Shown here: positions 271 through 57,646 of the stretch, in pieces
How the letters are laid out: each line of letters starts with the position of its first letter
Position numbering within the stretch: the first letter of the stretch is position 1
Assembly: GCF_008271745.1 (NCBI RefSeq)
Contig: NZ_VKKZ01000024.1
Span: 1-64,000 of the forward strand
From: Rufibacter glacialis
Lineage (GTDB): Bacteria; Bacteroidota; Bacteroidia; Cytophagales; Hymenobacteraceae
DNA length: 64,000 nt
Direction: 5' to 3'
Position numbers and translations under genes: made by a program
The notes under the pieces: model-generated
The model's input: only the letters and a program-made list of their open reading frames with translations
Databases searched by the model: none
Told to the model about the DNA's origin: nothing

Positions 271-296
271 CCCTTTTCAGAAAGTAGCCCTAAAGC
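271..296. repeat. Dispersed quasi-palindromic repeat, family A
   Basis: The core CTTTTCAGAAAGTAGCCC followed by TAAAGC matches the family A right half (GAAAGTAGCCCTAAA). It lies 57 bp before the start chosen for the next gene. Confidence 0.6.
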
Positions 297-322
297 CAGG
301 CAGGGCCTGCAGGGGAAATCCG

Positions 323-330
323 TACCTTTG
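323..330 (+). promoter_or_regulatory. Putative Bacteroidota -7 element TACCTTTG
   Basis: TACCTTTG fits the TAnnTTTG -7 consensus and lies 23 bp upstream of the ATG at 353. No convincing -33 TTTG is seen at the right distance, so the call rests on the -7 box and its position. Confidence 0.45.
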
Positions 331-352
331 CGGAGTTTTGAGAAGTCAGCGT

Positions 353-871
353 ATGAGCGAGAACCTTTTTCCAGAGATGCAGCATTTGCCGGGGCTGCCC
401 TTAACCAAGACCACCCGCCTGGGGCAGGTGCAGTTCTTCCATTTCGGGAAGGCGCACATCATGAACGCAAGTGGCCTGGTCCTGGATGTGGGGGCCTGGA
501 CCCTGGAGGTAGCCTGCCATTGGCATCTGGAAGAGGCCGGAGCGGTTATTATCCGGTTTGAAGACGTGGAGATCCCTAAAGATGCGCAAGCGCTGGCAGA
601 CCCGGCCTTTGACCCGCAGGTACCCGGCAGCAACCTGCGGGACCGCAAACTGCAAGAACTGGTGCGGGGGCAGCAAGAGCCGATACGGGTTTGGCAAATA
701 ACCGCTTCGCCGGAGGGTGATCTGACCATTACCCTGGAAGGGAACCGGCTTCTCCATATCCAACCCAGCCAGGGCATATTAGAGGATACTGCCATTTTCT
801 GGCGCCTTTTCAGCAATCCCCAGCCTTCTGAGGCGGTTGGTTTCGGGCCCGATGGGGTGGAGCGGACCTAA
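353..871 (+). CDS. Hypothetical protein, 172 aa
   Basis: I do not recognise this family. The ATG at 353 (MSENLFPEM) is preferred over the upstream in-frame ATG at 248, because the extra 35 codons would run through a family A repeat and the putative -7 element at 323-330. There is no signal peptide or membrane segment, so it is probably cytosolic. The C-terminal half (WQITASPEGDLTITLEG, then LLHIQPSQ) looks like alternating beta strands, similar in feel to small DUF-type proteins of Bacteroidota. It stands alone, with spacers on both sides, and the following spacer holds another degenerate repeat near 892-920. Confidence 0.75.
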   Translation: MSENLFPEMQHLPGLPLTKTTRLGQVQFFHFGKAHIMNASGLVLDVGAWTLEVACHWHLEEAGAVIIRFEDVEIPKDAQALADPAFDPQVPGSNLRDRKLQELVRGQQEPIRVWQITASPEGDLTITLEGNRLLHIQPSQGILEDTAIFWRLFSNPQPSEAVGFGPDGVERT

Positions 872-1080
872 AACCCAGCGGCGCGTTTTGCGGTTCGTTT
901 TTTAAAAAAAGCCTAGAAAAGACCTTCTGCAGAAATGGGTTCTTGACAGGCTGCAACCCTCGTTCTACAGGAGGTAAGGCTGGCGGCTTTTTTATGGGTT
1001 CACCCTGCTGGTGGCATTGCACTTGGGTATGATTCAACTATATTGCTTCCTGAATATATAGTAAAGAGTCAACCAGGTTT

Positions 1081-2118
1081 ATGGGCAAGCACCTCCGGAA
1101 GTATCCCGTCTGCACCAATTGTGATTACACGTTTACCAAAGAGCAGCCAGATAATTTTTGTCCCCGGTGCGGGCAGGAGAACCATGACCTCAACGTCCCT
1201 TTCAAGCACGTGGCGCTGGAGGTGCTGGAAGGCACCATCCACTACGACACCAAGTTCTGGACCACCATCAAGTACCTGCTCTTCTACCCCGGTAAGCTCA
1301 CCAATGAGTTCCACCGGGGGCGGCGCATAGGTTATGTGCCGCCCATCAGGCTGTATGTATTCATCAATTTCGTGTTCTTCTTTCTGCTGTCCATGCGCGT
1401 GGGGCATGTGGAGAATGAGCAGCAGAACAGGAGCATTGCCGAGCAGGTGAAGTCTAAGAATGCTGCTGAGTTTTTAAATCAGGTAGAAGTTGCCAATGAC
1501 AGTGTCACGGCAGTTGTTGGGCAAAAGCAGCTGGCAGATTCTTTGGTCAAGGTTGGCAGAAGCGAAATGGTAAAGCAAAGCAAGACGTTAGAGAGTACTT
1601 TAGAGAAAATGGGCAGTGTCTCAGACTTCGCGCCGCAGGCTACCATTGACTCTTTGATCAGAGACGCTGACTTGTCCCCTAACTGGTATACCCAGTCTGC
1701 CATGCGCAAAGGTGTTCATTTAATTAAGCTTCCGCAGGAACAATTGATTACCAAGCTGCTTAAGTACTGGTCTGTGCTCATGTTCGTGCTCATGCCCATC
1801 TTCGCGCTCTTGCTCAAGCTGGTCTTCTTCAAGGCCCGGCGCTTTTACATAGAACACCTCATGTTCAGCATCCACCTGCACTGCTTTGTGTTTCTGCTGT
1901 TCATCATCTACATGCTCAGTCTGTACCTGTTCACCTCTTTTGATCTGTTCGCCTGGGTCAACCTGTTAGGTGCCCTTTACCTGTATCTAGGGCTTAAACG
2001 GGTGTTCCGGCGCAGTAGGCTGCGCACGCTGTTCAACATGGCCGCCGTGCTTTTCCTGTACTTTTTTGCCGGAATCATCACCTTGGGCCTAGGCTTGCTG
2101 GTAAGCGCGGTACTGTAA
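1081..2118 (+). CDS. DUF3667 family zinc-ribbon membrane protein
   Basis: This 345 aa protein carries an N-terminal zinc ribbon (C11-x2-C14, then C27-P-R-C30 in CPRCGQ) followed by a conserved soluble segment (HVALEVLEGTIHYDTKFWTT) and membrane helices. A first helix lies near residues 90-105 (LYVFINFVFFFLLSM), and a cluster of about four more fills residues 235-345. A charged loop of about 130 residues separates the two parts. The layout matches the DUF3667 family of Bacteroidota membrane proteins, whose function is unknown. The ATG at 1081 leaves a natural N-terminus just before the zinc ribbon. It appears to be a single-gene unit. Confidence 0.85.
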   Translation: MGKHLRKYPVCTNCDYTFTKEQPDNFCPRCGQENHDLNVPFKHVALEVLEGTIHYDTKFWTTIKYLLFYPGKLTNEFHRGRRIGYVPPIRLYVFINFVFFFLLSMRVGHVENEQQNRSIAEQVKSKNAAEFLNQVEVANDSVTAVVGQKQLADSLVKVGRSEMVKQSKTLESTLEKMGSVSDFAPQATIDSLIRDADLSPNWYTQSAMRKGVHLIKLPQEQLITKLLKYWSVLMFVLMPIFALLLKLVFFKARRFYIEHLMFSIHLHCFVFLLFIIYMLSLYLFTSFDLFAWVNLLGALYLYLGLKRVFRRSRLRTLFNMAAVLFLYFFAGIITLGLGLLVSAVL

Positions 2119-2205
2119 AGGCAGCGGGCAGGAGGGCGTGAAGCAACCTTTACCCCAAATCGGCATCTATGGAAGAAACAACCAGTTCATCAAATTCTTT
2201 ATCTT

Positions 2206-2913: not shown

Positions 2914-2940
2914 GTTCCTCTGAATACTCTTATCCAAAGG

Positions 2941-2980
2941 AATGCCCCGGCTGCGCAAGTGGCCGGGGCATTCCTTTTTT
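2941..2980 (+). terminator. Rho-independent terminator after the DUF2807 gene
   Basis: AATGCCCCGG pairs with CCGGGGCATT around a 12-base loop and is followed by CCTTTTTT. Confidence 0.85.
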
Positions 2981-3415
2981 CTGCCTAATAGCACCAGAAG
3001 CCTGGCACTTGGAGTTATTCTAATATAGATTTAGTTCAATATTAGGAAAGCGGTAAAAGAGCCAAGGATCTACCTAGATAAAGGGCGGCCGCTTTGGTAT
3101 TTTTCAACCTTTTTACAAAAAACAGGAGCTAAATCAGCCTTTCACTTACGTGGATGAGTGGGTTCTTAACTATCAACAAGGAAGTAGCTTATATGGCAAA
3201 TTGAAAATGGAAATCGATTCATTCTTGCCAAAGTATTACTAATAGCGCCTTGGCGGCTTCTCAGAAGAACGGACGGTAGTGTAAGGGCTTTTCTCTGCTT
3301 TTGCTATTATTCAAATATAGCAAAACCTATTTGACATAATGTGCCGTAGGTACAACTTCAAATCCCATTACACACAACCAACTAACACATGTAAAACTTT
3401 TACCCTCTTTCCTTT
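2981..3415. other. Spacer with a degenerate repeat and a possible gene remnant
   Basis: The spacer contains a weak family A-like repeat at 3105-3135 (CTTTTTACAAAAAACAGG then AGCTAAAT). It also holds an open stretch, 3141-3242, reading FTYVDEWVLNYQQG and ending SFLPKYY before TAA. The stretch has protein-like composition but no start, and may be the 3' end of a decayed gene. No complete gene is seen. Confidence 0.4.
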
Positions 3416-6232: not shown

Positions 6233-6423
6233 GAAAAATATCTTCTAGGTCAGAAAGGAAAGAGGGTCAGGGGCATGAAGGGAGTCTGTTTAGGCTCTGA
6301 ATTCTCAAAACAAGCCCTGAAACAGGAAACACCTCCTGGCCAATTCTTAGGTTGAAAGACTATTTCTACGGGAAATTCTTGCATTCCTGCTGAACAAAAA
6401 GTAAACTTAATGGGGCAAATTCC

Positions 6424-8114: not shown

Positions 8115-8149
8115 AGTCCTGAGTTCTGAGTCTAGAGTCCTGAGTCTGA
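8115..8149. repeat. Heptamer-type array left of the four-helix-bundle gene
   Basis: Imperfect iterations of AGTCCTG / AGTTCTG / AGTCTAG occur 9 bp after the tldD stop. The array is inversely related to the array at 8543-8573. Confidence 0.7.
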
Positions 8150-8167
8150 AATAGAAAGTGTAATCCT

Positions 8168-10018: not shown

Positions 10019-12355
10019 ATGACAAGAATTCCAGTATTGTGTTTCATAGTAGGTGTACTGCTTTCTTACGCCGGGCATGGGCAAGCAATTGACCCGGCCT
10101 TTCACCCCAAGATAGAGCGCGGAGCTGAAATCTATAGCATTACCAAACTCAGTGAGGGAAAGGTGCTGGTGGCCGGTAATTTTGAGCGGGCAGAGGGGCA
10201 GGAAGCTCCTGGCCTGGTGAAACTGGGCGCAGACGGAAAAGTAGATGCTTCTTTTAAATTAGTAGGTGCCCAATGGAGTATCAATGATCTTGTTACGGTA
10301 GAACAAAAAGACAAGCGTCTCTTAGTAGGAGGACCAATCTTTCCTACCCCCCAACAACCTAATATCGGCATTTGCCGCCTCCTGCAAGACGGCAGCTTAG
10401 ATAATACCTTTACCAGTCCGGTGGCCAGCGGCAGTGTTAGCACCATTCTTGAGCAGGCAGATGGGAAGATAATTATTGGGGGCTCCTTTACGCTGAAAGG
10501 CAACACCACCCTCAAAAATATGGCGCGTCTGCTCAGCAATGGTACTCTTGACAACACCTTTCAAGTTGCGGTGGGCGCGAACCAAGCCGTAAAAGTCATC
10601 AGGGAGCAACCAGATGGAAAGCTTTTGGTAGGAGGAGATTTTACCCAATTTGAGAACGCCGTCACCTATCGGAAACTGATAAGGTTGTCTTCTGCGGGTG
10701 CAGTAGATGCCACCTTTGGCTGGGCGAACCTCGTGCATGAGGCAAACGGTGTGGTGGATCTTTTACTTCTGCCAGATGGGAGAATCCTTTTTGCCACCAA
10801 GCAAAAAAGGTCCAGTGCAGATACCGGCTACATAGGCCTGGGTTGCCTCAACGGCTCCGGGGCGCAAGCCACTAGCTTTGAGAATCCGTTTTCTCCTACT
10901 ACTGGTTCAGTAAGCGGGAATATGCTTTCCCTGGCTCTGCAAGACGGCAAAGTGCTTGTTGGGGGTACACTGATCAATAAAGCCACCTCAGCGGCTGTGC
11001 CGGTAGTAAGAATTACGGCTGATGGCCTTCTGGACAACTCTTTTCTACAGGTGACTTCTTCTGGTGCCGTTATCTGCCGGAGCCTGGCGGTGCAAGCCGA
11101 TAACAGCATTCTAATGGGAGGTGCTTTTGATAACTTTTCCGGCGTACATTCCAACGGTATTAACTTATTGGGCAGAGACGGCGGCCTCCAGGTTACCTTC
11201 GTTCCTGATCTGAGAACCCGCGGTTGGGTAAGGCGTGTCCTGGTGCAGAAAGATGCAAAGATTATTATTGCCGGGGACTTTGACTTTGTCAACAACACCA
11301 GAATAACCAATGCGGCCCGCCTTCTCCCCAACGGGTCAGTAGATGCCTCCTTTGATTTCGGGCATCTTTTTCAGGGTACCTCACCCAACCTGGCTATTCA
11401 GGAGGATAAGATTATTCTCCCTGCTCCCGCAGGAGGAACCCTGATGCGCATTGGCTATGATGGCCGGGAAGATGCCTCTTTTATAAAGCTCCCGATAACC
11501 GCTGTCAATGCCCTGGCCGTGACACCTGACGGCAAAATCATGGTGGCTGGCCTTGTCAATGGAAAACGATTTGTTCGTTTACAGGCCAACGGCACCCTGG
11601 ACCAGACGTTTGAGATTGACCCTACCATTAGATTTCCCGCTCAAACCATGTCAGTACAAGCTGATGGCAAGGTAGTGGTAGGAAGAAGAGACCCTACTAC
11701 TACTACTACTACTACTACTATTTACCCCACCGACCTTCTATTTAGGCTTACTACCCACGGGGCGCTGGATAATTCTTTCCATATTGGAACAGGTCCGGCC
11801 AATGATGTTAACAACGCGCTACACATTTCTACTGTAGTTGCGGAGCCAAACGGGACGCTTTTGGTGACAGGGCAATTTGAATCCTTTAGCGGAAACACTA
11901 CTTCCGCCACCGGCGGGATTGTGCGGCTGCATGAGAACGGCAGTTTCTTGGCTCCATTTACAGTTCCTGGTACTGACCTTAACTTTGTGTATGACGTGGC
12001 CAGGGAGGCCGCCGGCTCGTATCTTTTAGCAACATACTATTTTGGGGGCACCTCAAGAGCGCTGGTGAGGGTGAGTGCTACGCCCTTGGCTACAGGTAAA
12101 GAGACAGCCCCTGCTTTGACATCCATTTACCCCAATCCATTCGCCGGCACATTAAATGTTTCGTTAAAAGAAAGGCGCTCTAACAACTATGAGATTCGCG
12201 TGCTATCTCTCCATGGCCGGGAACTTTACAAGGGTATTTACCAGAACCCGGAATTTTCCCTGCCGTTGAGTCTCTTAACCAACGGAGTCTATTTGCTGGA
12301 AACAAGTGCCAACGGGAAGCGAGAAACCCGAAGAATTATTAAGATCAGCCAGTAG
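10019..12355 (+). CDS. Delta-60 repeat surface protein with T9SS sorting domain
   Basis: This 778 aa protein has a signal peptide (to about residue 21, GHGQA) and then tandem units of about 55-60 residues of the delta-60 / DUF5122 type. The units share the pattern Dg-xLDxTF, then QxDGKILVGGxF, and probably form a beta-propeller. The tail (LTSIYPNPFAGTLNVSL to RRIIKISQ) is a type IX secretion sorting domain. Eight consecutive ACT codons (11696-11719) encode a threonine run. A paralogue with the same design is at 24129-26516. The ligand is unknown. Confidence 0.9.
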   Translation: MTRIPVLCFIVGVLLSYAGHGQAIDPAFHPKIERGAEIYSITKLSEGKVLVAGNFERAEGQEAPGLVKLGADGKVDASFKLVGAQWSINDLVTVEQKDKRLLVGGPIFPTPQQPNIGICRLLQDGSLDNTFTSPVASGSVSTILEQADGKIIIGGSFTLKGNTTLKNMARLLSNGTLDNTFQVAVGANQAVKVIREQPDGKLLVGGDFTQFENAVTYRKLIRLSSAGAVDATFGWANLVHEANGVVDLLLLPDGRILFATKQKRSSADTGYIGLGCLNGSGAQATSFENPFSPTTGSVSGNMLSLALQDGKVLVGGTLINKATSAAVPVVRITADGLLDNSFLQVTSSGAVICRSLAVQADNSILMGGAFDNFSGVHSNGINLLGRDGGLQVTFVPDLRTRGWVRRVLVQKDAKIIIAGDFDFVNNTRITNAARLLPNGSVDASFDFGHLFQGTSPNLAIQEDKIILPAPAGGTLMRIGYDGREDASFIKLPITAVNALAVTPDGKIMVAGLVNGKRFVRLQANGTLDQTFEIDPTIRFPAQTMSVQADGKVVVGRRDPTTTTTTTTIYPTDLLFRLTTHGALDNSFHIGTGPANDVNNALHISTVVAEPNGTLLVTGQFESFSGNTTSATGGIVRLHENGSFLAPFTVPGTDLNFVYDVAREAAGSYLLATYYFGGTSRALVRVSATPLATGKETAPALTSIYPNPFAGTLNVSLKERRSNNYEIRVLSLHGRELYKGIYQNPEFSLPLSLLTNGVYLLETSANGKRETRRIIKISQ
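11696..11719 (+). repeat. (ACT)8 microsatellite inside the delta-60 gene
   Basis: Eight perfect ACT triplets encode eight threonines in a loop between propeller units (DPTTTT...IYPTD). The period is three, so slippage would change length without breaking the frame. Confidence 0.95.
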
Positions 12356-13017: not shown

Positions 13018-13059
13018 GCTTGTTTTTAGCCTGCTATCTGGAAACCAGGCCACAAGCGC
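13018..13059. repeat. Family A-like palindromic repeat
   Basis: GCTTGTTTTTAGCCTG is followed after a short gap by GGAAACCAGGCCACAAGC. The arms GCTTGT and ACAAGC and the inner AGCCTG and CAGGCC pair. It lies 40 bp after the DUF4159 stop. Confidence 0.6.
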
Positions 13060-13232
13060 AAGAGCATAGTTCTTTTTAAAGGGTAGAATGCGGGGATGGC
13101 GGGGCCTATTTGGTATTGCAGATTCTGTACGGACAGGTCGCTACCTGTCCTGATACGCATATTAGTTTCCAATACGCAGACCAGCGCCGGGCCTTTGCTT
13201 AGCGTTAGAGGCAAGCTGAGAAACCACTTTTT

Positions 13233-13263
13233 GGCCTGCTTTTCTAAAAACAGGAGTAAAACC
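13233..13263. repeat. Family A-like palindromic repeat
   Basis: GGCCTGCTTTTCTAAAAACA followed by GGAGTAAAACC has the family layout in the MoxR upstream spacer. Nothing else is recognised between 12979 and 13323. Confidence 0.5.
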
Positions 13264-14917: not shown

Positions 14918-15802
14918 ATGCCCCACCGCCTCCTCAACCCGCAAACGTTCGCTGCTATCAAAGACCTGCGCCTTATTGCAAAGGCGGTGGTGGATGGGTT
15001 TCTGTTGGGGCAGAACCAGAGCATCAGGCGGGGGCCGGGCATTGAGTTCGCGCAGTACCGGAGTTACCAACCCGGCGATGACCTTAGGCAATTGGACTGG
15101 AAAATGTTCGCGCGGTCAGACAGGTATTATATCCGGGAATCTGAGGTAGACAGCAGCGTGGCCGTGCGATTTGTGGTGGACGCCAGCGGCTCCATGGCGC
15201 ACCAGGACGGCACCCTCGCCAAGCTGGACTACGCCCGCTATCTGGTGGCGGCGCTCGCTTACCTGGCCACGCAGCAGGGCGATGCCGTCGGGTTGTTTGT
15301 GCTGCAGGAAGACCAGTTGGTGCCCTTGGCCCCGGGGCAGTCCACCCAGCACCTGCAGCGGCTCTTCCACCAGCTGGACCAGGTGAAACCGGGCGGACAG
15401 TTCCCCGCCGCTGACTGTTTAGCCCCTGTTTTCGCCAAAAAGCGGCAAAAGGAGCTGACCGTGCTGGTCACCGACATGTACGAACAGACCTCGGAGATTA
15501 CTGACACCCTGCGCAAAATAGGCGCCCGCGAGAAAGACACGCTGTTGTTCCATCTCATGGGGCAGAACGAACTGGAATTCAACTACCAGGGTCCGGTCTC
15601 ATTCCAGGACCTGGAAACGGGCCAAACCATTCAGGTGAGTTCTGAAACCCAACGCACCGAGTACCTCCAGAACCTCCACCAATGGCTCCAAGCCCTGGAA
15701 ACCGATGCCCGGAAAAAACAGATCCACTACGAGCGTTTCCACCTGCACGAACCTTTAGACAAAGCATTGCGGGCTTTCCTGCTGAGCCGGGCAAAGCAGT
15801 AA
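14918..15802 (+). CDS. DUF58 domain protein with VWA-type MIDAS
   Basis: This 294 aa protein contains the DUF58 signature RRGPGIEFAQYRSYQPGDDLRQLDWK, followed by a von Willebrand A-like fold with a MIDAS motif at Asp88-x-Ser90-x-Ser92 (VVDASGSM). DUF58 proteins partner with MoxR ATPases, and the moxR gene is 600 bp upstream. The next genes expected in such clusters (BatA-like membrane proteins) are absent; the sequence after the stop is a repeat-rich gene-free region instead. Confidence 0.93.
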   Translation: MPHRLLNPQTFAAIKDLRLIAKAVVDGFLLGQNQSIRRGPGIEFAQYRSYQPGDDLRQLDWKMFARSDRYYIRESEVDSSVAVRFVVDASGSMAHQDGTLAKLDYARYLVAALAYLATQQGDAVGLFVLQEDQLVPLAPGQSTQHLQRLFHQLDQVKPGGQFPAADCLAPVFAKKRQKELTVLVTDMYEQTSEITDTLRKIGAREKDTLLFHLMGQNELEFNYQGPVSFQDLETGQTIQVSSETQRTEYLQNLHQWLQALETDARKKQIHYERFHLHEPLDKALRAFLLSRAKQ

Positions 15803-15804
15803 GG

Positions 15805-15860
15805 GAGTCCTGAATTTTTAGTTCTGAGTCTTGAGTCCAGAGTTCTGAGTCTTGAGTTTG
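15805..15860. repeat. Orphan heptamer-type array
   Basis: GAGTCCTGA, TTCTGAGTCTTGAGTCCAGA and GTTCTGAGTCTTGAGTTTG repeat the motif that flanks the four-helix-bundle gene, but no such gene is present here. Confidence 0.7.
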
Positions 15861-15874: not shown

Positions 15875-16465
15875 TAGGCGGTTGTTTTCAGGAAAGAGGC
15901 TCAAAACACAGGTTGCGAGGGGGACCGTTGTTGGCAGAGACACTCGTAGGTCCTCCAGACACTACGAGGTCATTGGAGAAAGGCATGGCGGAGGGCAACA
16001 AGGAGCTTTTATTTTTTGCTGGCGCGAGACTTGAGTCTCGTGACATGGGATGATGCGAGTCTCCAGACTCGCCGGGAACCACGAATAGATTGCTTCTGCT
16101 GGAGAATTAACCCAGAAGTTTCATTTTCCCCATTTCCAAAGTCTCTGAAATTTTTCCTCCTTCAGAAAACTATTCCCGGCATTTAAAGAGCAGAAGTGGT
16201 GATCTGCTGCCCCGCTTTCGCTGCTTGGCAGCGAGGGTAGTCAGAGACTACCCGTTATCCCTGGGTCACGAGTCTGGAGACTCGCGCCAGGAAATGCTCC
16301 TTCATTTTACTATACACCTCAGATTTCCCCTCCTAACCCAACTGCGCCCGCTCAAAAGACCTCGTAGTGTCTTGCAGACCTACGAGTGTCTACGCCAATA
16401 ACGGTTCCTCCTAAATCACAAAGAACCATTTTGAACGTGTTTTCCATAAAACCAGGCAGTAACCA
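15875..16465. repeat. Nested giant imperfect palindrome filling a gene-free spacer
   Basis: Segments on the left recur in inverted order on the right. 15918-15971 (ACCGTTGTTGGCAGAGACAC, then TCGTAGGTC...GACACTACGAGGTC) pairs with 16358-16411. 16019-16044 (CTGGCGCGAG...CTCGTGAC) pairs with 16264-16292. A GGGAT...GTCTC...GACT stretch near 16047-16073 pairs with 16230-16263. The outermost part includes a family A copy at 15875-15909. The centre lies near 16165. Each arm also contains its own small palindromes. No reading frame of note is present from 15803 to 16583. Confidence 0.7.
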
Positions 16466-16511: not shown

Positions 16512-16566
16512 ATCGGCCCTGTTTTCGGCTCCTTTTCATCAAAAGGAGCCGAAAACAGGGCCGATA
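16512..16566 (-). terminator. 25-bp perfect hairpin after the M16 gene, a family A derivative
   Basis: ATCGGCCCTGTTTTCGGCTC plus CTTTT pairs without mismatch with its reverse complement around the loop CATC. It lies 17 bp beyond the stop of the minus-strand M16 gene and keeps the family A order (GTTTT, GGC, TTTTC / AAAA, GCC, AAAAC). No long T-run follows, so it may stall transcription or protect the transcript end. Confidence 0.75.
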
Positions 16567-21144: not shown

Positions 21145-21182
21145 GCGTTTGGCGCCTCTTTCCTGGAAAACAGCTTCAAAAC
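21145..21182. repeat. Family A repeat upstream of the acylase gene
   Basis: GTTTGGCGCCTCTTTCCTGG followed by AAAACAGCTTCAAAAC keeps the family layout, 80 bp upstream of the ATG at 21262. Confidence 0.6.
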
Positions 21183-24128: not shown

Positions 24129-26516
24129 ATGAAAAACTTTTACGCTTTACAAACCCTCCTGTTCTTTGTTTTTTCCATCGTCTCCCGCTCTGTTACAGGA
24201 CAATGCCTTGATGTTTCTTTTGATCCAGTTCTGGAAACCGGGGCTTCCATTCAATCCATTTTAGTAGAGCCAGACGGACGGGTTATGGCAGGAGGAGTCA
24301 TCTACAAAGCAAATGGAGTATCTGTCACCAATTTAGTTCGGCTGCAGGCCAATGGTACACTGGACCAGACTTTTGGAAATGGCTCTCCCGTAAACTTCAA
24401 CTCCACCATCAGAGTCATCAAAAAGCAGGCAGATGGAAAACTCTTGATAGCTGGTGCTTTTACCAAGTTCAATGACATTACTGCCAACAGAATTGTTCGT
24501 TTAAACAGCGATGGTACGCTGGATAACTCATTCAACTATACTGGAACCAATGGCTTTATTTCCACTTTGGTAATCCAATCTGACGGCAAAATCATAATTG
24601 GGGGTGCTTTTACCTTGGTCAACAATACACCCAGCAACAGGATTGCCCGGCTTTTACCCAATGGAGATCTGGATGAGACTTTCTCAGTTGGCTCAGGTGC
24701 CAATAATTCAGTGAGTTTGGCAGCACTGCAAGCAGACGGAAAGATTCTTCTGACCGGGAGCTTTACTTCCTTCAATGGATATAACTATAACCGGTTGCTT
24801 AGGTTAATGCCTACGGGGCACATAGATGGCACCTTCCAAACTGGTCAGGGAATGTCAAGCCCTAGCGGAACCTTAACCGTTCTCTCCAATGGACAAATCA
24901 TAGTAACTGGTTACACTTATAATGGAACTAACCTGAGGGAAGGAATGGCTCGTTTAAATGAAAACGGTAGTCATGATCTTTCGTTTCCAGCTTCTTACCT
25001 GGGTTTAAATGCGCCCGTCTCAGCTTTAACGCAAATAGCAGATGGCAGCCTCTTGGTGGCAGGCTCAATCTATACGGCTGTTGTAAAATTGAATCCGGAC
25101 GGTAGCAGAAGCGCCACCCTCCAGCCAGAAGATTATACGAATTCACAAACGACTACCAACCTTTCAATGGTACTTGCCCTTGCGGTAGATGCACAGGGCA
25201 AGATACTGGTTGGGGGAGATTTACAAAGAATCCAGAACCAGTATGTCAGCGGGATTGCCAGACTTCATGCAGATGGCCGCTTTGACAACTCTTTTGCCCC
25301 AGACCTTAGAACCAAAGGCACCATAAATACCGTGGTTGGGCAGCCAGATGGGAAAGTCCTGTTGGAAGGAAACATTACCTATGTCAACAACAAACAAGTG
25401 AACACGTTTGTCCGCTTGCTCTCCAATGGCTTATTAGATGAGTCGTTTGCCAATGGGGGGAAAGAGTTCCACCAATTTTCAAATATAGCGCTTCAGTCAA
25501 CCGGCAAGATCATCACCCTCAGTAACGTAGTGATGAACGGAAGTAAGCAAATAGGATTCAAACGCCTCCACCCAGATGGAACGCCAGATGTTGATTTCTC
25601 CATTAGAACGGGTAGTTCTGTGACCTCAATGGCCACTCAGCCAGACAACAAGATTCTTGTAGGAGGTACCATTTCAGAAGACGGGTCTGCAGCTACCGCT
25701 AGGAATTATCTTGGCCGGCTCAATGCAGATGGAACCATGGATCAGAGCTTTGAAACCGGGAGAGGGCCAAGCTTCTTTGTGCAAGCGATTGCTGTACAGT
25801 CTGATAAGAAGATAGTGATAGGAGGCATCAAAAGCTTTCTTTCCAGTTACAACGGCCTCCCCATCCCTGGCATTGCCCGGATACATGAAGATGGCACCTT
25901 AGATCAGAGCTTCCAAGTAGGCACCGGCCCTGGTTACTCAAATTCGGTGGTGTCCCCCACTATTGCCTCCATCCTATCTCTACCGTCGGGAAACCTGTTA
26001 GTGACTGGAGTGTTTGATTCGTTCAATGGGGTGCCCTGCGACGGGCTGATCCTCCTCAATACTGATGGTTCCGTCTCAAGTCCGGTGAATGTGCACTGTG
26101 CTATCGCTCCTAACCAACTAGCAAAAGGAGCTGTACGCTCTATGGCTTTGCTGCCCGGTAACAAGTTGGTTCTGGCCGGCAATCTCCCATTGACAGATGG
26201 CACTCTTAAAACCATTGTCAAGCTTGAACCGCCTATTCTTTTGGCCAGTAAGGATAAAACGTCCTCTCTCCACAAAAGGGGGGCTTTCCCTAATCCGTTC
26301 CAAGAAGAAGTTAGTTTTACCCTAGACAAAAGCAGCGTTGGCCCAGCTGAGGTGAAAGTGTATAGCCTCACAGGAACTCTGGTCTTCTCAAAAGCTATGG
26401 GGCAATCCTCAGGCGATGTGTTTACCCTTTCATTGAGCCATCTGACCCCAGGTACCTATTTGGTAGAAGTAACTTTAGGCAATAGCGTTCAGCGGCATAG
26501 AATCTTAAAGTATTAG
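24129..26516 (+). CDS. Delta-60 repeat surface protein with T9SS sorting domain (second copy)
   Basis: This 795 aa paralogue of the protein at 10019-12355 has a signal peptide (about residues 1-24), tandem delta-60 units (GRVMAGG, GKLLIAGAFT, GKIIIGGAFT, GKILLTGSFT, each followed by an LxxDGxLDxSF element) and a T9SS sorting tail (FPNPFQEEVSFTL to HRILKY). It is AT-richer than its paralogue. Both are probably exported to the cell surface, with a beta-propeller-like body of unknown ligand. Confidence 0.9.
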   Translation: MKNFYALQTLLFFVFSIVSRSVTGQCLDVSFDPVLETGASIQSILVEPDGRVMAGGVIYKANGVSVTNLVRLQANGTLDQTFGNGSPVNFNSTIRVIKKQADGKLLIAGAFTKFNDITANRIVRLNSDGTLDNSFNYTGTNGFISTLVIQSDGKIIIGGAFTLVNNTPSNRIARLLPNGDLDETFSVGSGANNSVSLAALQADGKILLTGSFTSFNGYNYNRLLRLMPTGHIDGTFQTGQGMSSPSGTLTVLSNGQIIVTGYTYNGTNLREGMARLNENGSHDLSFPASYLGLNAPVSALTQIADGSLLVAGSIYTAVVKLNPDGSRSATLQPEDYTNSQTTTNLSMVLALAVDAQGKILVGGDLQRIQNQYVSGIARLHADGRFDNSFAPDLRTKGTINTVVGQPDGKVLLEGNITYVNNKQVNTFVRLLSNGLLDESFANGGKEFHQFSNIALQSTGKIITLSNVVMNGSKQIGFKRLHPDGTPDVDFSIRTGSSVTSMATQPDNKILVGGTISEDGSAATARNYLGRLNADGTMDQSFETGRGPSFFVQAIAVQSDKKIVIGGIKSFLSSYNGLPIPGIARIHEDGTLDQSFQVGTGPGYSNSVVSPTIASILSLPSGNLLVTGVFDSFNGVPCDGLILLNTDGSVSSPVNVHCAIAPNQLAKGAVRSMALLPGNKLVLAGNLPLTDGTLKTIVKLEPPILLASKDKTSSLHKRGAFPNPFQEEVSFTLDKSSVGPAEVKVYSLTGTLVFSKAMGQSSGDVFTLSLSHLTPGTYLVEVTLGNSVQRHRILKY

Positions 26517-26545
26517 ATAAGCGATGGAGGTGAAGAGCAGGATTA

Positions 26546-26579
26546 TGGTTTCTTTCTGAAAAAAGCAGCGGGAAACAGG
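26546..26579. repeat. Family A-like repeat
   Basis: GGTTTCTTTCTGAAAAAAGC followed by AGCGGGAAACAGG lies 30 bp after the delta-60 stop. Confidence 0.5.
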
Positions 26580-27090: not shown

Positions 27091-27505
27091 AATAAGAAAG
27101 ACTTCCTGCTGCAAGATACAAGTGTTGTGGTTTGGCCGCCCCTTGCTAGGCTAATTTGCTTCTAATGCACGAAGAAGAACGCGTTTTAACCTATTTTATC
27201 TCTATTTGGCTTCGGACTAACAGACATACTTTTGGTCTGCTCCGTTGCTTTGATGCATCTTGCTGTTCTTCTCAGAATTCTTTCTGCCCCGCACGGATGT
27301 CCTCCAGGAGCTGCTCACCATGTTGGGCAGCCTGCCGTTACTGGTGATTTTAATACCTATTGTCAACCTATTTCCCGTCCATTTTCCTGAAATCAGGCTT
27401 TTATCGTCTTTCTATCTGACTCAAAACTCAAGACTCAGAACTAGTTTCAAAATTTATTTTGAAACTTCTGTAATGACTTCTCGCCTCAATCGTCTCTGTT
27501 AATGA
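27091..27505. other. Spacer upstream of the sigma factor gene
   Basis: No supported gene is seen; short open frames here show no domain. The only structure is an orphan heptamer-type array at 27418-27443 (GACTCAAAACTCAAGACTCA then GAACTAG), related to the arrays flanking the four-helix-bundle gene. Confidence 0.5.
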
Positions 27506-30573: not shown

Positions 30574-30580
30574 CCCCTGT

Positions 30581-30614
30581 TTGGGGCCTGCTTTTCCAGA
30601 AAGAAGCCCAAAAC
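30581..30614. repeat. Family A repeat after the DUF4097-like operon
   Basis: TTGGGGCCTGCTTTTCCAGA plus AAGAAGCCCAAAAC lies 8 bp after the stop. The arms TTGGGGC and GCCCAA pair. Confidence 0.7.
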
Positions 30615-30804
30615 CAAGCTGTCTTTTTGGTAATCAGGTGGTGGGCTTCCTGTTCCAGAGGAGTAGGTGGAAAGCAAAAGTTCAAGGAAGGCGCGGCGGA
30701 GTTGTTTCAGGCTTGTTTTAGGTAAACCGGAAGGAAAACGTGGAGGGTGTACGTGGTTTTTGCGCTGATTTTCTCAAATTTGCCCCTCACCTTATTTACC
30801 CTCC

Positions 30805-32154: not shown

Positions 32155-32190
32155 GTTTCAGAGCCCTTTCCTGAAAAGTAGCCTTGAAAC
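32155..32190. repeat. Family A repeat upstream of the PfkB gene
   Basis: GTTTCAGAGCCCTTTCCTGA plus AAAGTAGCCTTGAAAC is one of the clearest copies; the outer arms GTTTCA and TGAAAC pair. A weaker relative is at 31964-31998, directly after nagA. Confidence 0.8.
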
Positions 32191-33222: not shown

Positions 33223-33258
33223 GTTTCAGGCCCGGTTTCCAGATTTAAGGCCGAAAAC
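33223..33258. repeat. Family A repeat between convergent genes
   Basis: GTTTCAGGCCCGGTTTCCAG plus ATTTAAGGCCGAAAAC lies between the PfkB kinase (+) and RlpA (-) stops and could serve both transcripts as a terminator. Confidence 0.7.
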
Positions 33259-34413: not shown

Positions 34414-34449
34414 GTTTTACCCCTTATTTTCTGAAAAGGCCCCAAAAAC
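34414..34449. repeat. Family A repeat upstream of the alpha/beta hydrolase gene
   Basis: GTTTTACCCCTTATTTTCTG plus AAAAGGCCCCAAAAAC lies 44 bp before the hydrolase start. Confidence 0.65.
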
Positions 34450-34536: not shown

Positions 34537-34571
34537 GTTTCTAGCCTTGTTTCTGAAAAGAGGCCTGAAAC
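34537..34571. repeat. Family A repeat after the GNAT gene
   Basis: GTTTCTAGCCTTGTTTCTGA plus AAAGAGGCCTGAAAC is among the best matches to the consensus, 59 bp beyond the GNAT stop. Confidence 0.8.
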
Positions 34572-38177: not shown

Positions 38178-38212
38178 GTTTCAAGCCTGGTTTCAGAAAA
38201 AGAGCCTGAAAG
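38178..38212. repeat. Family A repeat between the two Hsp20 genes
   Basis: GTTTCAAGCCTGGTTTCAGA plus AAAAGAGCCTGAAAG is a clear family member. Confidence 0.75.
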
Positions 38213-38245
38213 CCCCTGGCCAGGGACCTTCTAAGCCTTTGTGGG

Positions 38246-40249: not shown

Positions 40250-40338
40250 GCCCAATCGGTTAAGGGCGTGTTTGGCCAAAAGAAGCAGAAAATCACCTGG
40301 CCCGTCCTTGCTGGCAGACCCGGGCAGATACCCGCATG

Positions 40339-43555: not shown

Positions 43556-43742
43556 ATTGATACCTGCTTGTAAAGTAAGCCAGTATCCTGAAACCACATC
43601 AGCTGCTGGTGTCCATTCTCCCTCACCCGCAGCTTAATGGTTTCATAGCAACTTCTGTTTAGGAGTTGGACCTGTTGTTAAAGATCCAGATTTAGTCTGT
43701 TTAAGGCTTATTTTCTGATTTAGACTTGAAAGCAGAAGGCGC

Positions 43743-48138: not shown

Positions 48139-48174
48139 GTTTCTGGCCGGTTTTTCTGAAAAAGCCGCCAAAGC
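48139..48174. repeat. Family A repeat in the nrdB-nrdA spacer
   Basis: GTTTCTGGCCGGTTTTTCTG plus AAAAAGCCGCCAAAGC. Confidence 0.7.
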
Positions 48175-48356: not shown

Positions 48357-48392
48357 GCTTTGGGCTTGTTTTCAAAGAAACAGCCCCAAAGC
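48357..48392. repeat. Family A repeat after nrdB, well-paired arms
   Basis: GCTTTGGGCTTGTTTTCAAA plus GAAACAGCCCCAAAGC. The outer arms GCTTTGGGCT and AGCCCCAAAGC pair almost completely, 24 bp beyond the nrdB stop. Confidence 0.8.
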
Positions 48393-51060: not shown

Positions 51061-51093
51061 AAAGAAGGCTGCCCCACAAGGCAGCCTTCTTTG
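51061..51093 (+). terminator. Rho-independent terminator after rpmA
   Basis: AAAGAAGGCTGCC pairs with GGCAGCCTTCTTT around CCACAA, followed by GTTTT. Confidence 0.9.
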
Positions 51094-51128
51094 TTTTAGG
51101 GCCGTTTTGCAGAAAAGTAGCTCTAAAC
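51093..51128. repeat. Family A repeat directly after the rpmA terminator
   Basis: GTTTTAGGGCCGTTTTGCAG plus AAAAGTAGCTCTAAAC. Confidence 0.8.
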
Positions 51129-51214
51129 ACCTGGCAAGAAAGCTGCCCCTCTACGCCACCAAAGATGTATTGCCTGGATGATCTTTGGATTTAGCGGGTG
51201 TTTTTGAGAAAACG

Positions 51215-51292
51215 GGAAGGGAACGGCTGTGGCACAGACACTCGCAGGTCTTGCAGACACTACGAGGTCTTTTGAGCAGACGGTTTTGGGGA
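51215..51292. repeat. Single copy of the GACACTCG-type repeat arm
   Basis: GGGAACGGCTGTGGCACAGA, then CACTCGCAGGTC...GACACTACGAGGTCTTTTGAGC, matches each arm of the giant palindrome at 15918-16411 over about 75 bp. It sits in a gene-free spacer (51028-51789). Confidence 0.75.
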
Positions 51293-52609: not shown

Positions 52610-52644
52610 GTTTTAGACCTGTTTTGGCTAAAATAAGGGAAAAC
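52610..52644. repeat. Family A repeat upstream of the cyclase gene
   Basis: GTTTTAGACCTGTTTTGGCT plus AAAATAAGGGAAAAC, 8 bp before the start codon of the minus-strand gene. Confidence 0.65.
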
Positions 52645-52761
52645 AGGAAGCAACACCACTTTTACTTTAGCACCAGGAAGTAGGTAAGGGTCTGTGAGTA
52701 GTGGCCAATGCCATGGTGGCTACAGTAGACCGGCTTTACTTCTTCCGCTGATCAGACGGCC

Positions 52762-53334: not shown

Positions 53335-53515
53335 GGGAAAAGGGGCCGCTATTGGGGGCGAAGAGAAATGCGATAAGCGGCTGTTTTGGCAAAAGTAGGT
53401 GAAAAATAGAGTTTTACCGGCCTTGCGTTTCTCACTTCTTCCTATCCAAACTGCTCCTGTACCAAGCAGAAAAGCCTTTCCGGGCGCTGCTGCAACTACC
53501 CTTTCTCCCGCGGTT

Positions 53516-55108: not shown

Positions 55109-55140
55109 CGTCAGTAGTGGTTGGTTTCCCAGAAGATGCA

Positions 55141-55174
55141 TTTAGAGGCCGTTTTTCATAAAGCAGCCCTAAAC
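55141..55174. repeat. Family A repeat
   Basis: TTTAGAGGCCGTTTTTCATA plus AAGCAGCCCTAAAC, between the MBL-fold gene and the 119-aa gene. Confidence 0.75.
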
Positions 55175-55237
55175 AAACGCGCTCCTGCTCAGGCAGGGAA
55201 AACCCTCTGAAAACGGAACCTGACCCCTAAACAGGGT

Positions 55238-56362
55238 TTACTCCAGCCCTTTCCACCATGGGGTCTGCGGTAAATTCTCCTGAAGGCTCCAGCGTTGCCC
55301 AATGAGCGGCGTGGCCAGTTGGATGTTGTGCTGCCGTGCGGCTTTGGAGAGGCGTTCAATAGGGTCTTTCCAGTGGTGCAGCGCCAGCGAGAAAGCGCCC
55401 CAGTGGGTGGACATGAGCACTTTCCCTTTCAGGTCCAGGTGGGCCTGGGCGGTTTGCTCGGGCATCATGTGAATGTAGCGCCAGGCTTCGTTGTACTGGC
55501 CGCACTCCAGCAAGGTGAGGTCAAAGGGACCGTATTTCTTGCCTATTTCCTTGAAATGCATGTCATACCCAGAGTCGCCGCCGAAGTAGACCGAGCTCTC
55601 CCCGCTTTTCACCACCCAGGAACACCACAGGGTCTCGTCCCGGTCGGTGAGGCCGCGGCCCGAGAAGTGGCGGGCGGGGGTGGAAGCCAGGAACAGGCCC
55701 TCTATCTCGGTGGTTTCCCACCAGTCCAGCTCGGTGATCTTGCCGGCGTCTACGCCCCAGCGTTGCAGGTGCGCAGCCACCCCCAACGGTACCACAAAGC
55801 GGGCGGTTTTTTCTTTCAGCTTCAGAATGGTGCCGCGGTCCAGGTGGTCATAGTGGTCATGCGAGAGCAGCACGATGTCTAGCGGCGGCAAATCTTCTAT
55901 GGCCAGGGGAAGCTTTTCATTAAAGCGCTTGCTCCCGATAAAGGAAACCGGCGAGGCCCGCTGCCCCAGCATAGGATCGGCGAAGATGCGTTTCCCGTTT
56001 ACTTCCAGCAATACCGCTGAATGCCCGAACCAGGTGACGGTGATTCCCTTGGCCGGCGTTCCGGCAAAATCTTCTTTCTTCAAAGGCGCCATGGGCAAGA
56101 GCTGGGCCGGCGTGGCGCCTTCGGTGCCGCCAATGAACTTGGCAAAGATCTTCACCTTGTCCAGGAACGGGGCCTCGTCCATCATGGGAGTGGGAGAGAT
56201 ATTCTGGAACTTGCCGTCGCGGTAGTGCTTTGATTTCTGGATGCGGTCAAGACTCTGGCCCTGGGCGGCCGCCCCAAACTGCGGGGCCAGCGCCAGAAAA
56301 AGGAGGCCGCCAATGGTGGCCGTGGCAAGAAAGGAAAGCAGGAAGTACATAAATTTCTTCAT
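55238..56362 (-). CDS. MBL-fold metallo-hydrolase (NAPE-PLD/UlaG-like)
   Basis: This 374 aa protein begins with a membrane-inserting or signal segment (residues 1-28) and has the zinc motif HxHxDH as LSHDHYDH (His168, His170, Asp172, His173), with WFGHSAVLLEVNG before it and FGGDSGYDMHF, MMPEQTAQAH and STHWGAFSL after it. The arrangement is that of NAPE-PLD-like phosphodiesterases and UlaG-like lactonases. It should act in the envelope; the substrate is not clear. Confidence 0.9.
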   Translation of the reverse strand: MKKFMYFLLSFLATATIGGLLFLALAPQFGAAAQGQSLDRIQKSKHYRDGKFQNISPTPMMDEAPFLDKVKIFAKFIGGTEGATPAQLLPMAPLKKEDFAGTPAKGITVTWFGHSAVLLEVNGKRIFADPMLGQRASPVSFIGSKRFNEKLPLAIEDLPPLDIVLLSHDHYDHLDRGTILKLKEKTARFVVPLGVAAHLQRWGVDAGKITELDWWETTEIEGLFLASTPARHFSGRGLTDRDETLWCSWVVKSGESSVYFGGDSGYDMHFKEIGKKYGPFDLTLLECGQYNEAWRYIHMMPEQTAQAHLDLKGKVLMSTHWGAFSLALHHWKDPIERLSKAARQHNIQLATPLIGQRWSLQENLPQTPWWKGLE

Positions 56363-56448
56363 TGGCGATCTGGAACTATGACAAATACCACGGGCACAGG
56401 CGAATTGTTTAGGAATACCTTAACGGGGCGCGGCAGATGGTTAAAAAA

Positions 56449-56506
56449 AGATATCCTCTGTTTCAGGGCATCTTTTACGAAAGTAGCCCTAAAACAGAGG
56501 ATATCT
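56449..56506 (-). terminator. 21-bp hairpin built on a family A repeat
   Basis: AGATATCCTCTGTTTCAGGG plus C pairs (20 of 21 positions) with GCCCTAAAACAGAGGATATC plus T around a 16-base loop. The inner part (GGGC...TTTTACGAAAGTAGCCC) is a family A core. It lies 42 bp beyond the stop of the minus-strand lipoprotein gene. Confidence 0.75.
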
Positions 56507-56548
56507 GGAAAAGCGTTTCCGGCGGATTTCTGCCAGAAGGGGCACCCG

Positions 56549-57223
56549 TTAGTTAACTCTCAACGACCCAGGTTTTTTGAAGTGAAACGGAGCGGTGGAC
56601 GGTGCCTTGCGCAGGTTCGTTTTCACGTCGTCATCGTCATCGAGGTCTATCGGAATAGCGGCAACCTCACCGGCATAAAAGGCTTTCACGCCTTTGTTGT
56701 TCTCCAGCTGAAGATCACAGTCAATGGTGTAGTTGGGCTCTGCGCCTGATACCCTGATGGTGCCGCCGGTGATCATGAACTCCTCTTCGTTGTCTTCGGT
56801 GTCGCCGTCGCCGTTGGCGTCAATGTAGAAGGACGATTCTACAAAGACGTTTTGGGTTTTGAATTTGGCTTCGGCCTCTGTGTCGCTGGTCACCTTGCTC
56901 AGGTCGCCGTAGGCAAAGGTGCCCGCTTTGAACGAGGCAGTGCCGGCGGAGAGGAGGTAAAGCTCTAGGGTTACTTTAGGTTGCACGGTGGGGCCCACAG
57001 TATCTACCAGCGCAAAAGCCTTGAAATAATGGGTGTTCGAGTTTCGCACAAAGCCGAAGGGGCCAAAGTCTACCGTAAACGCCTGGTTCAGGCCATACTT
57101 GGCATTGTTGTACTCCAGTTCATTGGGGCGGGGAGTGTCATCATCGTCGTCACCGCAAGACACCGCCAAAAAACTGAACAGGAGCAAGGTCATTGCTCTA
57201 AAGGTAAGGGTACGTTTTTTCAT
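56549..57223 (-). CDS. Hypothetical 'SCGDDDDD' lipoprotein
   Basis: This 224 aa protein has a lipoprotein signal with Cys23 (FLAVSCGDDDDD), the acidic post-cysteine stretch that often marks surface-exposed lipoproteins in Bacteroidota. A beta-rich domain follows (KVTLELYLLSAGTASFKAG, YIDANGDGDTEDNEEEFMIT, the latter looking like a calcium-loop-like segment). No named domain is recognised. It is a single-gene unit with a long hairpin downstream. Confidence 0.8.
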   Translation of the reverse strand: MKKRTLTFRAMTLLLFSFLAVSCGDDDDDTPRPNELEYNNAKYGLNQAFTVDFGPFGFVRNSNTHYFKAFALVDTVGPTVQPKVTLELYLLSAGTASFKAGTFAYGDLSKVTSDTEAEAKFKTQNVFVESSFYIDANGDGDTEDNEEEFMITGGTIRVSGAEPNYTIDCDLQLENNKGVKAFYAGEVAAIPIDLDDDDDVKTNLRKAPSTAPFHFKKPGSLRVN

Positions 57224-57646
57224 GGGAGAGGTAATTGAAAAAGGTTAAGCTGAAAGAATAAGGTATACGCGTAGGTTGGTCTGACGTGGAAGAAGGTGTG
57301 GCATCTGTTTCTGTACCGTTTTTCTGCGGAAACGGTTGCTTCTTTACGGCCCGTTTTCCTTGAAACAGGCGCAAAACAGGACCTGAAGCAGAGGGCGCAC
57401 AAAGGGCATTACACTGGCAATAACCTGGTTTTTCAGCGCAACTCCAAACCATGGGGTAAAGGAAAGGCAGAACCCATGCTTTTTTACGGGCTTGCCCTTT
57501 TCTTCTTCTACGGGTGTCTTGGTTATTACGCCACCTGAGCCGCCCATAGGTGTGTTTCTGTCCGTAAGTTGTGCGGTGGATAAGTGATTCTCTCCTGAAA
57601 ACAGTTTATTGCCTGATTCTGATAAAAGGGGGCGTAAACGCGGGGG
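57224..57646. other. Spacer with a family A repeat
   Basis: The spacer between hemW and the lipoprotein gene carries a family A copy at 57343-57380 (TTTACGGCCCGTTTTCCTTG plus AAACAGGCGCAAAACAGG) and a smaller CCGTTTTTCTGCGGAAACGG palindrome at about 57317-57336. Short frames on both strands lack domains and are not supported as genes. Confidence 0.55.

What the first reader, a model, noticed from the sequence alone, without database searches (positions are those of the whole stretch)
271..57380. Family A: a roughly 36-40 bp quasi-palindromic repeat at about twenty intergenic sites
By eye, copies fit GTTTnnGGCCTGTTTTC-nn-GAAAAnAGgCCnnAAAC. The clearest are 32155-32190, 33223-33258, 34414-34449, 34537-34571, 38178-38212, 48139-48174, 48357-48392, 51093-51128, 52610-52644, 55141-55174, 30581-30614 and 15875-15909. 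None falls inside a gene whose start I trust, and in several cases they explain why an upstream in-frame start is wrong. Many lie within 60 bp downstream of a stop codon. Several contain GAAAGTAG or CAAAAGTA, whose complement resembles the TACTTTTG -7 box, so some copies could also act as promoters. No transposase or RAYT-like gene is in the window.
Basis: seen in the sequence. Interest (0 to 1): 0.75.

Follow-up and report, generated by a model that had tools for sequence, protein, structure and literature searches.

The report
Genus-wide palindromic gene-boundary DNA sites
Every Rufibacter genome examined carries roughly one to two thousand copies of a 36-base mirror-like DNA site, nearly always between genes, many of them at matching places in different species but spelled in a species-specific dialect, which suggests that a still unknown protein reads them.

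Summary
The unit is a 36-bp palindrome, GTTTTNGGSCTGTTTT-YYRR-AAAACAGSCCNAAAAC. 33 places in the window score 20 or more (31 intergenic; surrogate mean 0.1), including all 12 listed. A 14-base architecture pattern finds 809-2249 copies in each of 16 Rufibacter genomes (reversed control 3-15) and background in 23 other genomes of the order. Sites sit in orthologous gaps while their flanks diverge, yet the consensus differs by species. 52 of 808 copies lie in genes. In 592 of 719 copies the arms show almost no pairing covariation, so most look like double-stranded DNA sites with independently read halves, not RNA hairpins. About 9% (67 of 719) have palindromic flanks and paired arms; about half of these are followed by a T-run and look like co-opted intrinsic terminators. 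REP/RAYT, uptake-sequence, promoter and MITE readings fail tests. Best explanation: binding site of an unidentified symmetric DNA-binding protein in the spacers between transcription units. The protein was not found; no binding was shown. A new variant of a known kind, the abundant extragenic palindrome.

The parts
262..296 (.). family A palindrome, loop 3
   Evidence: score 26.6, intergenic
885..920 (.). family A palindrome, 13 bp after a stop
   Evidence: score 29.5
3100..3134 (.). weak family A palindrome
   Evidence: score 22.3
6288..6323 (.). family A palindrome
   Evidence: score 25.8
13022..13057 (.). family A palindrome, 43 bp after a stop
   Evidence: score 24.7
13227..13262 (.). family A palindrome
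   Evidence: score 33.9
   Evidence: score 29.6
16428..16464 (.). family A palindrome, loop 5
   Evidence: score 25.2
16521..16556 (.). family A palindrome with 9-bp palindromic flanks (terminator-like class)
   Evidence: score 34.1; extended flanks and T-run test
21147..21182 (.). family A palindrome
   Evidence: score 33.7
26541..26576 (.). weak family A palindrome, 24 bp after a stop
   Evidence: score 21.9
27370..27405 (.). weak family A palindrome
   Evidence: score 20.4
30579..30614 (.). family A palindrome (listed), 5 bp after a stop
   Evidence: score 33.8
30704..30739 (.). family A palindrome
   Evidence: score 29.5
32155..32190 (.). family A palindrome (listed)
   Evidence: score 30.4
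33223..33258 (.). family A palindrome (listed), between convergent genes
   Evidence: score 23.0
34414..34449 (.). family A palindrome (listed)
   Evidence: score 30.7
34537..34571 (.). family A palindrome, loop 3 (listed)
   Evidence: score 36.1, best in the window
38178..38213 (.). family A palindrome (listed)
   Evidence: score 34.3
40259..40293 (.). weak family A palindrome, 9 bp after a stop
   Evidence: score 22.4
43699..43732 (.). weak family A palindrome, loop 2
   Evidence: score 22.6
48139..48174 (.). family A palindrome (listed)
   Evidence: score 27.5
48357..48392. family A palindrome (listed), 23 bp after the stop of the ribonucleotide reductase small-chain gene
   Evidence: score 33.9; orthologous site in 7 of 8 genomes whose stretch covers that gene
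51093..51128 (.). family A palindrome (listed)
   Evidence: score 35.7
51189..51224 (.). weak family A palindrome
   Evidence: score 22.5
52610..52645. family A palindrome (listed), just upstream of the called start of the cyclase-family gene
   Evidence: score 27.6; at the same place in 16 of 16 genus genomes (14 of 16 with loop exactly 4)
53372..53407 (.). weak family A palindrome
   Evidence: score 21.8
55140..55175 (.). family A palindrome (listed)
   Evidence: score 28.0; orthologous site in 15 of 16 genomes
56460..56495 (.). family A palindrome with 11-bp palindromic flanks and an A-run on the left, i.e. a T-run for the minus-strand gene (terminator-like class)
   Evidence: score 31.5; orthologous site in 14 of 16 genomes; alignment
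57342..57377 (.). family A palindrome
   Evidence: score 34.7
57604..57639. family A palindrome, 7 bp after the stop of a HemN-like gene
   Evidence: score 29.3; orthologous site in 13 of 15 genomes
15417..15451 (.). match inside a called gene, chance or decayed copy
   Evidence: score 24.4
58535..58570 (.). match inside the HemN-like gene; weak matches at the corresponding place of this gene recur in relatives, so probably coding sequence
   Evidence: score 25.9

Best explanation
Family A is a genus-wide family of double-stranded DNA sites: two 16-bp half-sites (GTTTTNGGSCTGTTTT) in mirror orientation around a 4-bp YYRR centre. I infer that one genus-wide protein, a symmetric dimer or a pair of dimers, reads the two halves independently and occupies about 800 to 2,250 sites per chromosome in the spacers between transcription units, often a little past the terminator. 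There it would act as a fixed boundary or anchor, for example limiting the spread of supercoils or of read-through between neighbours. About 9% of the sites have palindromic flanks and paired arms, and about half of those are followed by a T-run, so a minority (about 5 to 9%) look co-opted as intrinsic terminators. Shown by sequence: copy number, intergenic place, conserved positions, species dialects, near-absence of pairing constraint in most copies, the two halves occurring together, the terminator-like subset. Inferred: a protein, its symmetry, and the boundary function.
For: Counts 809-2249 in 16 of 16 genus genomes, reversed control 3-15. Orthologous sites kept in 14/16, 13/15, 14/16, 15/16 and 7/8 genomes, element identity 0.69 versus flank identity 0.39 and 0.30 (five sites picked because they looked shared). 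Unpicked test: in 39 orthologous gaps of G000 and G006, 18 have the element in both, 12 in neither, 9 in one only, p=0.0013, and the position shifts by at most 15 bp in 11 of 13 single-element gaps. The consensus differs by species, and held-out copies fit their own species profile best in 7/7 (G005), 6/6 (G013), 6/8 (G014), 6/9 (G006), 5/10 (G001) and 2/7 (G007, whose dialect is near that of G014). Position 9 is G or C with the four main combinations about equal (CG 158, CC 132, GG 121, GC 111) in 592 copies without palindromic flanks, as for a base contact without base pairing. Isolated half-sites are at chance level in five of eight species (19 versus 19 in surrogates) and few beside paired ones elsewhere (G001: 16 versus 297 in palindromes). 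Convergent gaps hold 161 elements in 165 gaps (4.24 per kb), co-directional 2.52, divergent 1.50 per kb. In 61 of 79 element-terminator pairs of co-directional gaps the element lies downstream of the terminator. A weak 10-bp phased G+C variation in the flanks (p about 2e-5 for filtered copies, 24-80 bp from the centre) would fit bent or wrapped DNA.
Against: No binding protein was found and there are no binding data. Thousands of sites changing dialect together is hard for point mutation plus selection alone. In the six high-information species same-species copies at different sites (0.739) are hardly more alike than orthologous copies (0.733) once two double counts are removed; over all 16 genomes orthologues are more alike (0.694 versus 0.643), so concerted change is visible in the profiles but not dominant. 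In the window's own genome sites are degraded (half-site information 14.2 bits versus 21.4 in R. ruber). Isolated half-sites exceed the surrogates in G000 (137 versus 37), G003 (17 versus 9) and G001 (16 versus 8; 9 versus 1 at the stricter cut); I take them as half-decayed copies, untested. Weak pairing remains at positions 5 and 6 in the unpaired class (z 2.7 and 2.1). The phased signal is absent in the window's genome alone (p 0.29) and fades when the range is widened to 105 bp (p 0.08). Elements also lie in divergent gaps (80 in 165), so a pure gene-end role is excluded.
Confidence: 0.5

Rival explanations
1. A REP- or MITE-like selfish repeat that spread in the Rufibacter ancestor, is tolerated in free spacer DNA and keeps turning over, with dialects made by successive bursts.
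For: Genus-restricted, hundreds to thousands of copies, intergenic, palindromic; lineage-specific extra copies, such as a fully palindromic one in G011 192 bp upstream of the metallo-hydrolase gene; many near-consensus copies in G001 (1374 strict matches).
Against: No GTAG or CGTC tag (20 and 16 of 1616 ends versus 45 and 18 of 1612 control stretches); direct flank repeats only weakly in excess (2-mers 39 versus 17.8, 4-mers 4 versus 1.1 in 451 copies) against strong inverted flanks; few isolated ends; no Y1 transposase match in G007; positions kept across a genus whose metallo-hydrolase orthologues are 69-86% identical to the window's.
Confidence: 0.27
2. The copies are mainly transcription terminators working as RNA hairpins.
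For: Gene-end enrichment; 67 of 719 copies have palindromic flanks and paired arms, and 37 of 69 such copies beside a gene end are followed by a T-run; pooled alignment of 79 copies shows covariation above shuffles.
Against: Copies without palindromic flanks: T-run in 35 of 571, next to no arm covariation in 592. Terminator-like hairpins with T-run are about as dense in the genus (79-271 per Mb, 8 species) as in four sister genera (100-250) and independent of the element (co-directional gaps 63/293 with, 42/190 without; convergent 41/105 and 10/19, p 0.32). Elements lie in divergent gaps too.
Confidence: 0.1
3. Strong DNA gyrase (or other topoisomerase) sites, functionally like BIME-2 of E. 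coli: fixed places to remove supercoils between transcription units.
For: Place between transcription units; 4-bp centre; weak 10-bp phased G+C variation in flanks; E. coli gyrase has a motif with phased 10-bp G+C variation and cuts in BIME-2 (PMC6379681, abstract and passages).
Against: Gyrase is universal (recalled) but the site is genus-specific with dialects; phasing is weak (amplitude about 1.5%) and not seen in the window's own genome alone.
Confidence: 0.08
4. Uptake sequences for natural transformation, with dialects as in Neisseriaceae.
For: Thousands of copies, a conserved core and species dialects, as described for DUS (PMC3630211, passages, which also mention DUS in dyad pairs in one species); ComEC-type gene in 16 of 16 genomes.
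Against: Half-sites hardly occur alone; only 52 of 808 copies in genes; a type IV pilus/type II secretion ATPase (PF00437) is over its cut-off in 0 of 16 genomes, with sub-threshold matches in 8.
Confidence: 0.05

Closest known systems
REP elements and RAYT transposases (GTAG/CGTC repeats)
   Same: Short, palindromic, intergenic, hundreds to thousands of copies, enriched after genes; CGTC repeats, reported also from Bacteroidetes, lack a dedicated transposase (PMC3733652, passages)
   Different: No GTAG/CGTC tag, 16-bp arms with next to no pairing constraint in most copies, no link to RAYT genes found; the RAYT-type gene of G006 has other palindromes on both sides
BIME-2 / gyrase sites of E. 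coli
   Same: Palindromic DNA between transcription units; a DNA-level role is proposed
   Different: Genus-specific dialects, protein unknown; whether copies form mosaic arrays was not examined
DNA uptake sequences of Neisseriaceae
   Same: Thousands of copies, conserved core, dialects by species
   Different: Both halves nearly always together, rarely in genes, no type IV pilus ATPase over cut-off
Bidirectional intrinsic terminators of Bacteroidota
   Same: Palindromes common in convergent gaps; a minority of family A copies (67 of 719 with palindromic flanks, about half with a T-run) look like hairpin terminators
   Different: Arm order is reversed (T-tract at the left end, A-tract at the right end), no T-run and no pairing constraint in most copies

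Membership tests
REP/RAYT repeats | GTAG or CGTC at one end | tested here: not met
   20 and 16 of 1616 ends versus 45 and 18 of 1612 control stretches; definition from passages of PMC3733652
REP/RAYT repeats | repeat flanks a RAYT gene | tested here: not met
   8 of 45 genus Y1 matches had their loci read: G006 has other palindromes on both sides, G005 and G012 on one side; family A lies on both sides within about 300 bp in 3 of 8 (G008, G013, G005), which I judge unremarkable at its general density, without a formal test
REP/RAYT repeats | RAYT present where the repeat is | tested here: not met
   G007: 561 strict copies, no Y1_Tnp match at E 0.001; 15 of 16 genus genomes have one or more
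REP/RAYT repeats | intergenic, many copies | tested here: met
MITE | target-site duplication | tested here: not met
   451 best-preserved copies: 2-mers 39 versus 17.8 expected, 4-mers 4 versus 1.1; inverted flanks far stronger (6-mers 59 versus 1.6); offsets inside the arms not tested
MITE | ends shared with an autonomous transposon | tested here: inconclusive
   isolated half-sites at chance level in five of eight species, in excess in G000, G003 and G001; only part of each genome was read and no search for a carrier transposon was made
Intrinsic terminator | hairpin followed by T-run | tested here: not met
   35 of 571 for copies without palindromic flanks; met by 37 of 69 copies with them
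DNA uptake sequence | single units, also in genes, type IV pilus machinery | tested here: not met
Gyrase site (BIME-2-like) | cleavage or binding by gyrase | not testable with these tools
   only a weak phased G+C signal
Rfam RNA families | match over gathering score | tested here: not met
   only a tRNA in the window

The most novel reading that the evidence does not exclude
Rufibacter chromosomes carry a boundary code: an unknown genus-wide DNA-binding protein occupies about 800 to 2,250 palindromic 36-bp sites in the spacers between transcription units, and protein and sites have co-evolved into species dialects. This would be a sequence-specific, chromosome-wide insulator or anchor system in bacteria.
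Probability: 0.33. Interest if true: 0.85.

Novelty: new variant of a known kind. Interest (0 to 1): 0.64.

Why it matters
Extragenic palindromes are usually filed as selfish REPs or as terminators. Here 16 species give a natural experiment: many positions stay, dialects change, pairing is not needed in most copies, and the two halves go together. That makes the open question of what abundant extragenic palindromes are for testable: the sequence predicts a protein that can be fished out with a 40-bp bait, and dialect swaps between species give the control.

Tried and rejected
Promoter reading: the -7 box is not enriched. RAYT link: rejected. RNA hairpin for the main class: rejected by species-stratified covariation; a pooled alignment of 79 copies from eight species (79 of 145 drawn references) does show covariation above shuffles, which I put down to mixed dialects and the palindromic-flank class. 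Replacement of ordinary terminators: rejected. Uptake sequences: disfavoured. Analogous palindromes in 100-kb samples of four sister-genus genomes: mostly terminator-like ones and no comparable abundant long-spaced dyad. A sequence-only model saturated at 150 scored candidates in each of the 16 genus genomes, so it gave no copy numbers; in the 23 other genomes it gave 0 to 17 matches at E 0.1 or better, the best 6e-6 in G022. Partner protein: not found; beyond PF01797, PF00437 and PF03772 I ran no search for one, as no whole proteome could be compared. Papers: six were opened (PMC12306157 abstract, outline and passages; PMC2267715 abstract and outline; PMC3733652, PMC3630211, PMC6379681 and PMC2817692 passages), the rest seen in listings only. 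Searches for Rufibacter plus palindromic, extragenic palindromes plus Bacteroidetes plus RAYT and wider term sets listed no paper whose title or abstract start describes this family; papers outside that library were not searched.
Full report
WHAT IS THERE. The window is the first 64 kb of contig 23 of an unnamed 5.32 Mb genome. Contig lengths identify G001 as R. ruber, G003 as R. latericius, G004 as R. hautae, G005 as R. immobilis, G011 as R. sediminis and G012 as Sabulibacter ruber.

HOW MANY AND WHERE. A strict 36-mer pattern gives 58 copies in the window's genome, 28 to 1374 in the 15 congeners, and none in 23 genomes of other genera. In 200 genomes of the family, 4 of 184 outside the genus have one match each to a related pattern. 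A pattern with 14 near-invariant bases, one mismatch allowed, gives 809 to 2249 per genome in 16 of 16 (reversed control 3 to 15), and 1 to 39 in the 23 others (control 1 to 38). Profile density at score 20 in samples of eight species is 364 to 592 per Mb. Of 808 copies scoring 24 or more, 52 lie mostly in a called gene, although 76% of the DNA is called coding. In gaps of 30 to 700 bp: convergent 161 copies in 165 gaps (78% of gaps have one), co-directional 371 in 645 (47%), divergent 80 in 165 (41%). Leaving out 100 bp before each start, densities are 4.18, 2.85 and 2.23 per kb, so gene ends are preferred up to about two-fold but are not required. In 88 co-directional gaps of 250 to 600 bp with one copy, 48 copies have their centre within 90 bp of the upstream stop.

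CONSERVED PLACE, CHANGING SPELLING. In a syntenic block of 16 genomes (window about 48 to 61 kb) copies sit at the same places relative to orthologous genes. Five sites were scored with loop exactly 4: present in 14 of 16, 13 of 15, 14 of 16, 15 of 16 and 7 of 8 genomes whose stretch holds the flanking gene; element identity between orthologues 0.69, ungapped flank identity 0.39 (left, partly coding) and 0.30 (right). These five were chosen by eye as shared sites, so the rates are not a random sample. The unpicked test is the 39 gaps shared by G000 and G006: both 18, one only 9, none 12, p=0.0013; no other pair of samples shared 8 or more gaps. The half-site consensus differs by species: GTTTTNGGSCTGTTTT (G001), GTTTAGGGGCTSTTTT (G005), GTTTTTGGCCTRTTTT (G014), GTTTTCGGGCTCATTT (G013). 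Held-out copies score best with their own species profile in 7/7 (G005), 6/6 (G013), 6/8 (G014), 6/9 (G006), 5/10 (G001) and 2/7 (G007, whose consensus is near that of G014). Identity of same-species copies at different sites, of orthologous copies and of unrelated copies is 0.739, 0.733 and 0.693 in six species, and 0.643, 0.694 and 0.637 in all 16 (two double-counted elements removed): both descent and dialect are visible, and dialect is not dominant.

DNA SITE RATHER THAN HAIRPIN. Copies with a 4-bp loop and score 24 or more number 719. In 592 whose flanks are not palindromic, arm positions pair no more often than when right arms are shuffled within species, except weakly at positions 5 and 6 (z 2.7 and 2.1); position 9 is CG 158, CC 132, GG 121, GC 111. 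The centre tends to YYRR. In 67 copies with palindromic flanks the arms do covary (for example positions 5, 6, 7, 9 and 12, z 3.4 to 6.6); the 60 intermediate copies were left out. Of 69 copies with palindromic flanks beside a gene end (all loop lengths), 37 are followed by a T-run, versus 35 of 571 without such flanks (odds ratio 17.7). So a minority look like co-opted intrinsic terminators, and these probably carry part of the covariation seen in a pooled alignment. At the lower cut-off isolated half-sites number 19 versus 19 in surrogates for G005, G006, G007, G013 and G014 together, 16 versus 8 in G001, 17 versus 9 in G003 and 137 versus 37 in G000; at the stricter cut-off 4 versus 3 for the five, then 9 versus 1, 4 versus 0 and 41 versus 5. 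I read the excess as half-decayed copies, which was not tested.

NEIGHBOURHOOD. Terminator-like hairpins with T-run are about as common in the genus (79 to 271 per Mb in eight species) as in four sister-genus samples (100 to 250). Co-directional gaps with and without the element have one equally often (63/293, 42/190); convergent gaps 41/105 and 10/19 (p 0.32). Where both occur in a co-directional gap the element is downstream in 61 of 79 pairs, 32 of them 28 to 58 bp away. The flanks show a weak 10-bp phased G+C variation between 24 and 80 bp from the centre (p about 2e-5 after removing terminator-like and palindromic flanks; not significant in G000 alone, p 0.29, nor over 24 to 105 bp, p 0.08).

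WHAT IT IS NOT. No GTAG or CGTC tag; no clear target duplication. Y1 transposases are matched in 15 of 16 genus genomes but not in G007, and also in other genera without the repeat. Of 8 genus loci read around such genes, G006 has other palindromes on both sides and G005 and G012 on one side. No promoter box. A type IV pilus/type II secretion ATPase is over the family cut-off in 0 of 16 genomes, though all 16 have a ComEC-type gene.

INTERPRETATION. The features fit a site read on double-stranded DNA by a symmetric protein, placed in spacers and kept by selection, with a subset re-used as terminators. The protein, its number of subunits and the boundary function are inference. A mobile, REP-like origin in the genus ancestor is likely in any case; the question is whether the copies now do something, and long retention of position with loss of flanks argues that they do. 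The window's own species is a poor representative: its sites are degraded (14.2 versus 21.4 bits per half-site in R. ruber), which may mean relaxed selection.

Noticed in passing
window 15921-15978 and 51219-51276: A 58-bp pair, 81% identical, near family A copies; possibly a second dispersed repeat.
   Followed up: no
window 8115-8152 and 15806-15857: Imperfect 14-bp direct repeats (AGTCCTGAGTTCTG-like) at two places.
   Followed up: no
window 10019-12355 and 24129-26516: Two long ORFs (778 and 795 aa) sharing several 30- to 64-bp internal repeats; probably repeat proteins of one family.
   Followed up: no
L076 (G006) 929-2075, L081 (G005) 1229-1256, L080 (G012) 1253-1363: RAYT-type transposase genes with their own nearby palindromes, e.g. 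CTTTCGGATTTGCAATCCGAAAG on both sides in G006, unlike family A.
   Followed up: partly
G025 (another family of the order), e.g. L279, L281: An asymmetric 35- to 52-bp repeat with a similar layout of T- and A-tracts, 58 plus 57 matches, in 1 of 11 genomes of its family.
   Followed up: partly
flanks of family A copies, 24-80 bp from the centre: Weak 10-bp phased G+C variation.
   Followed up: partly
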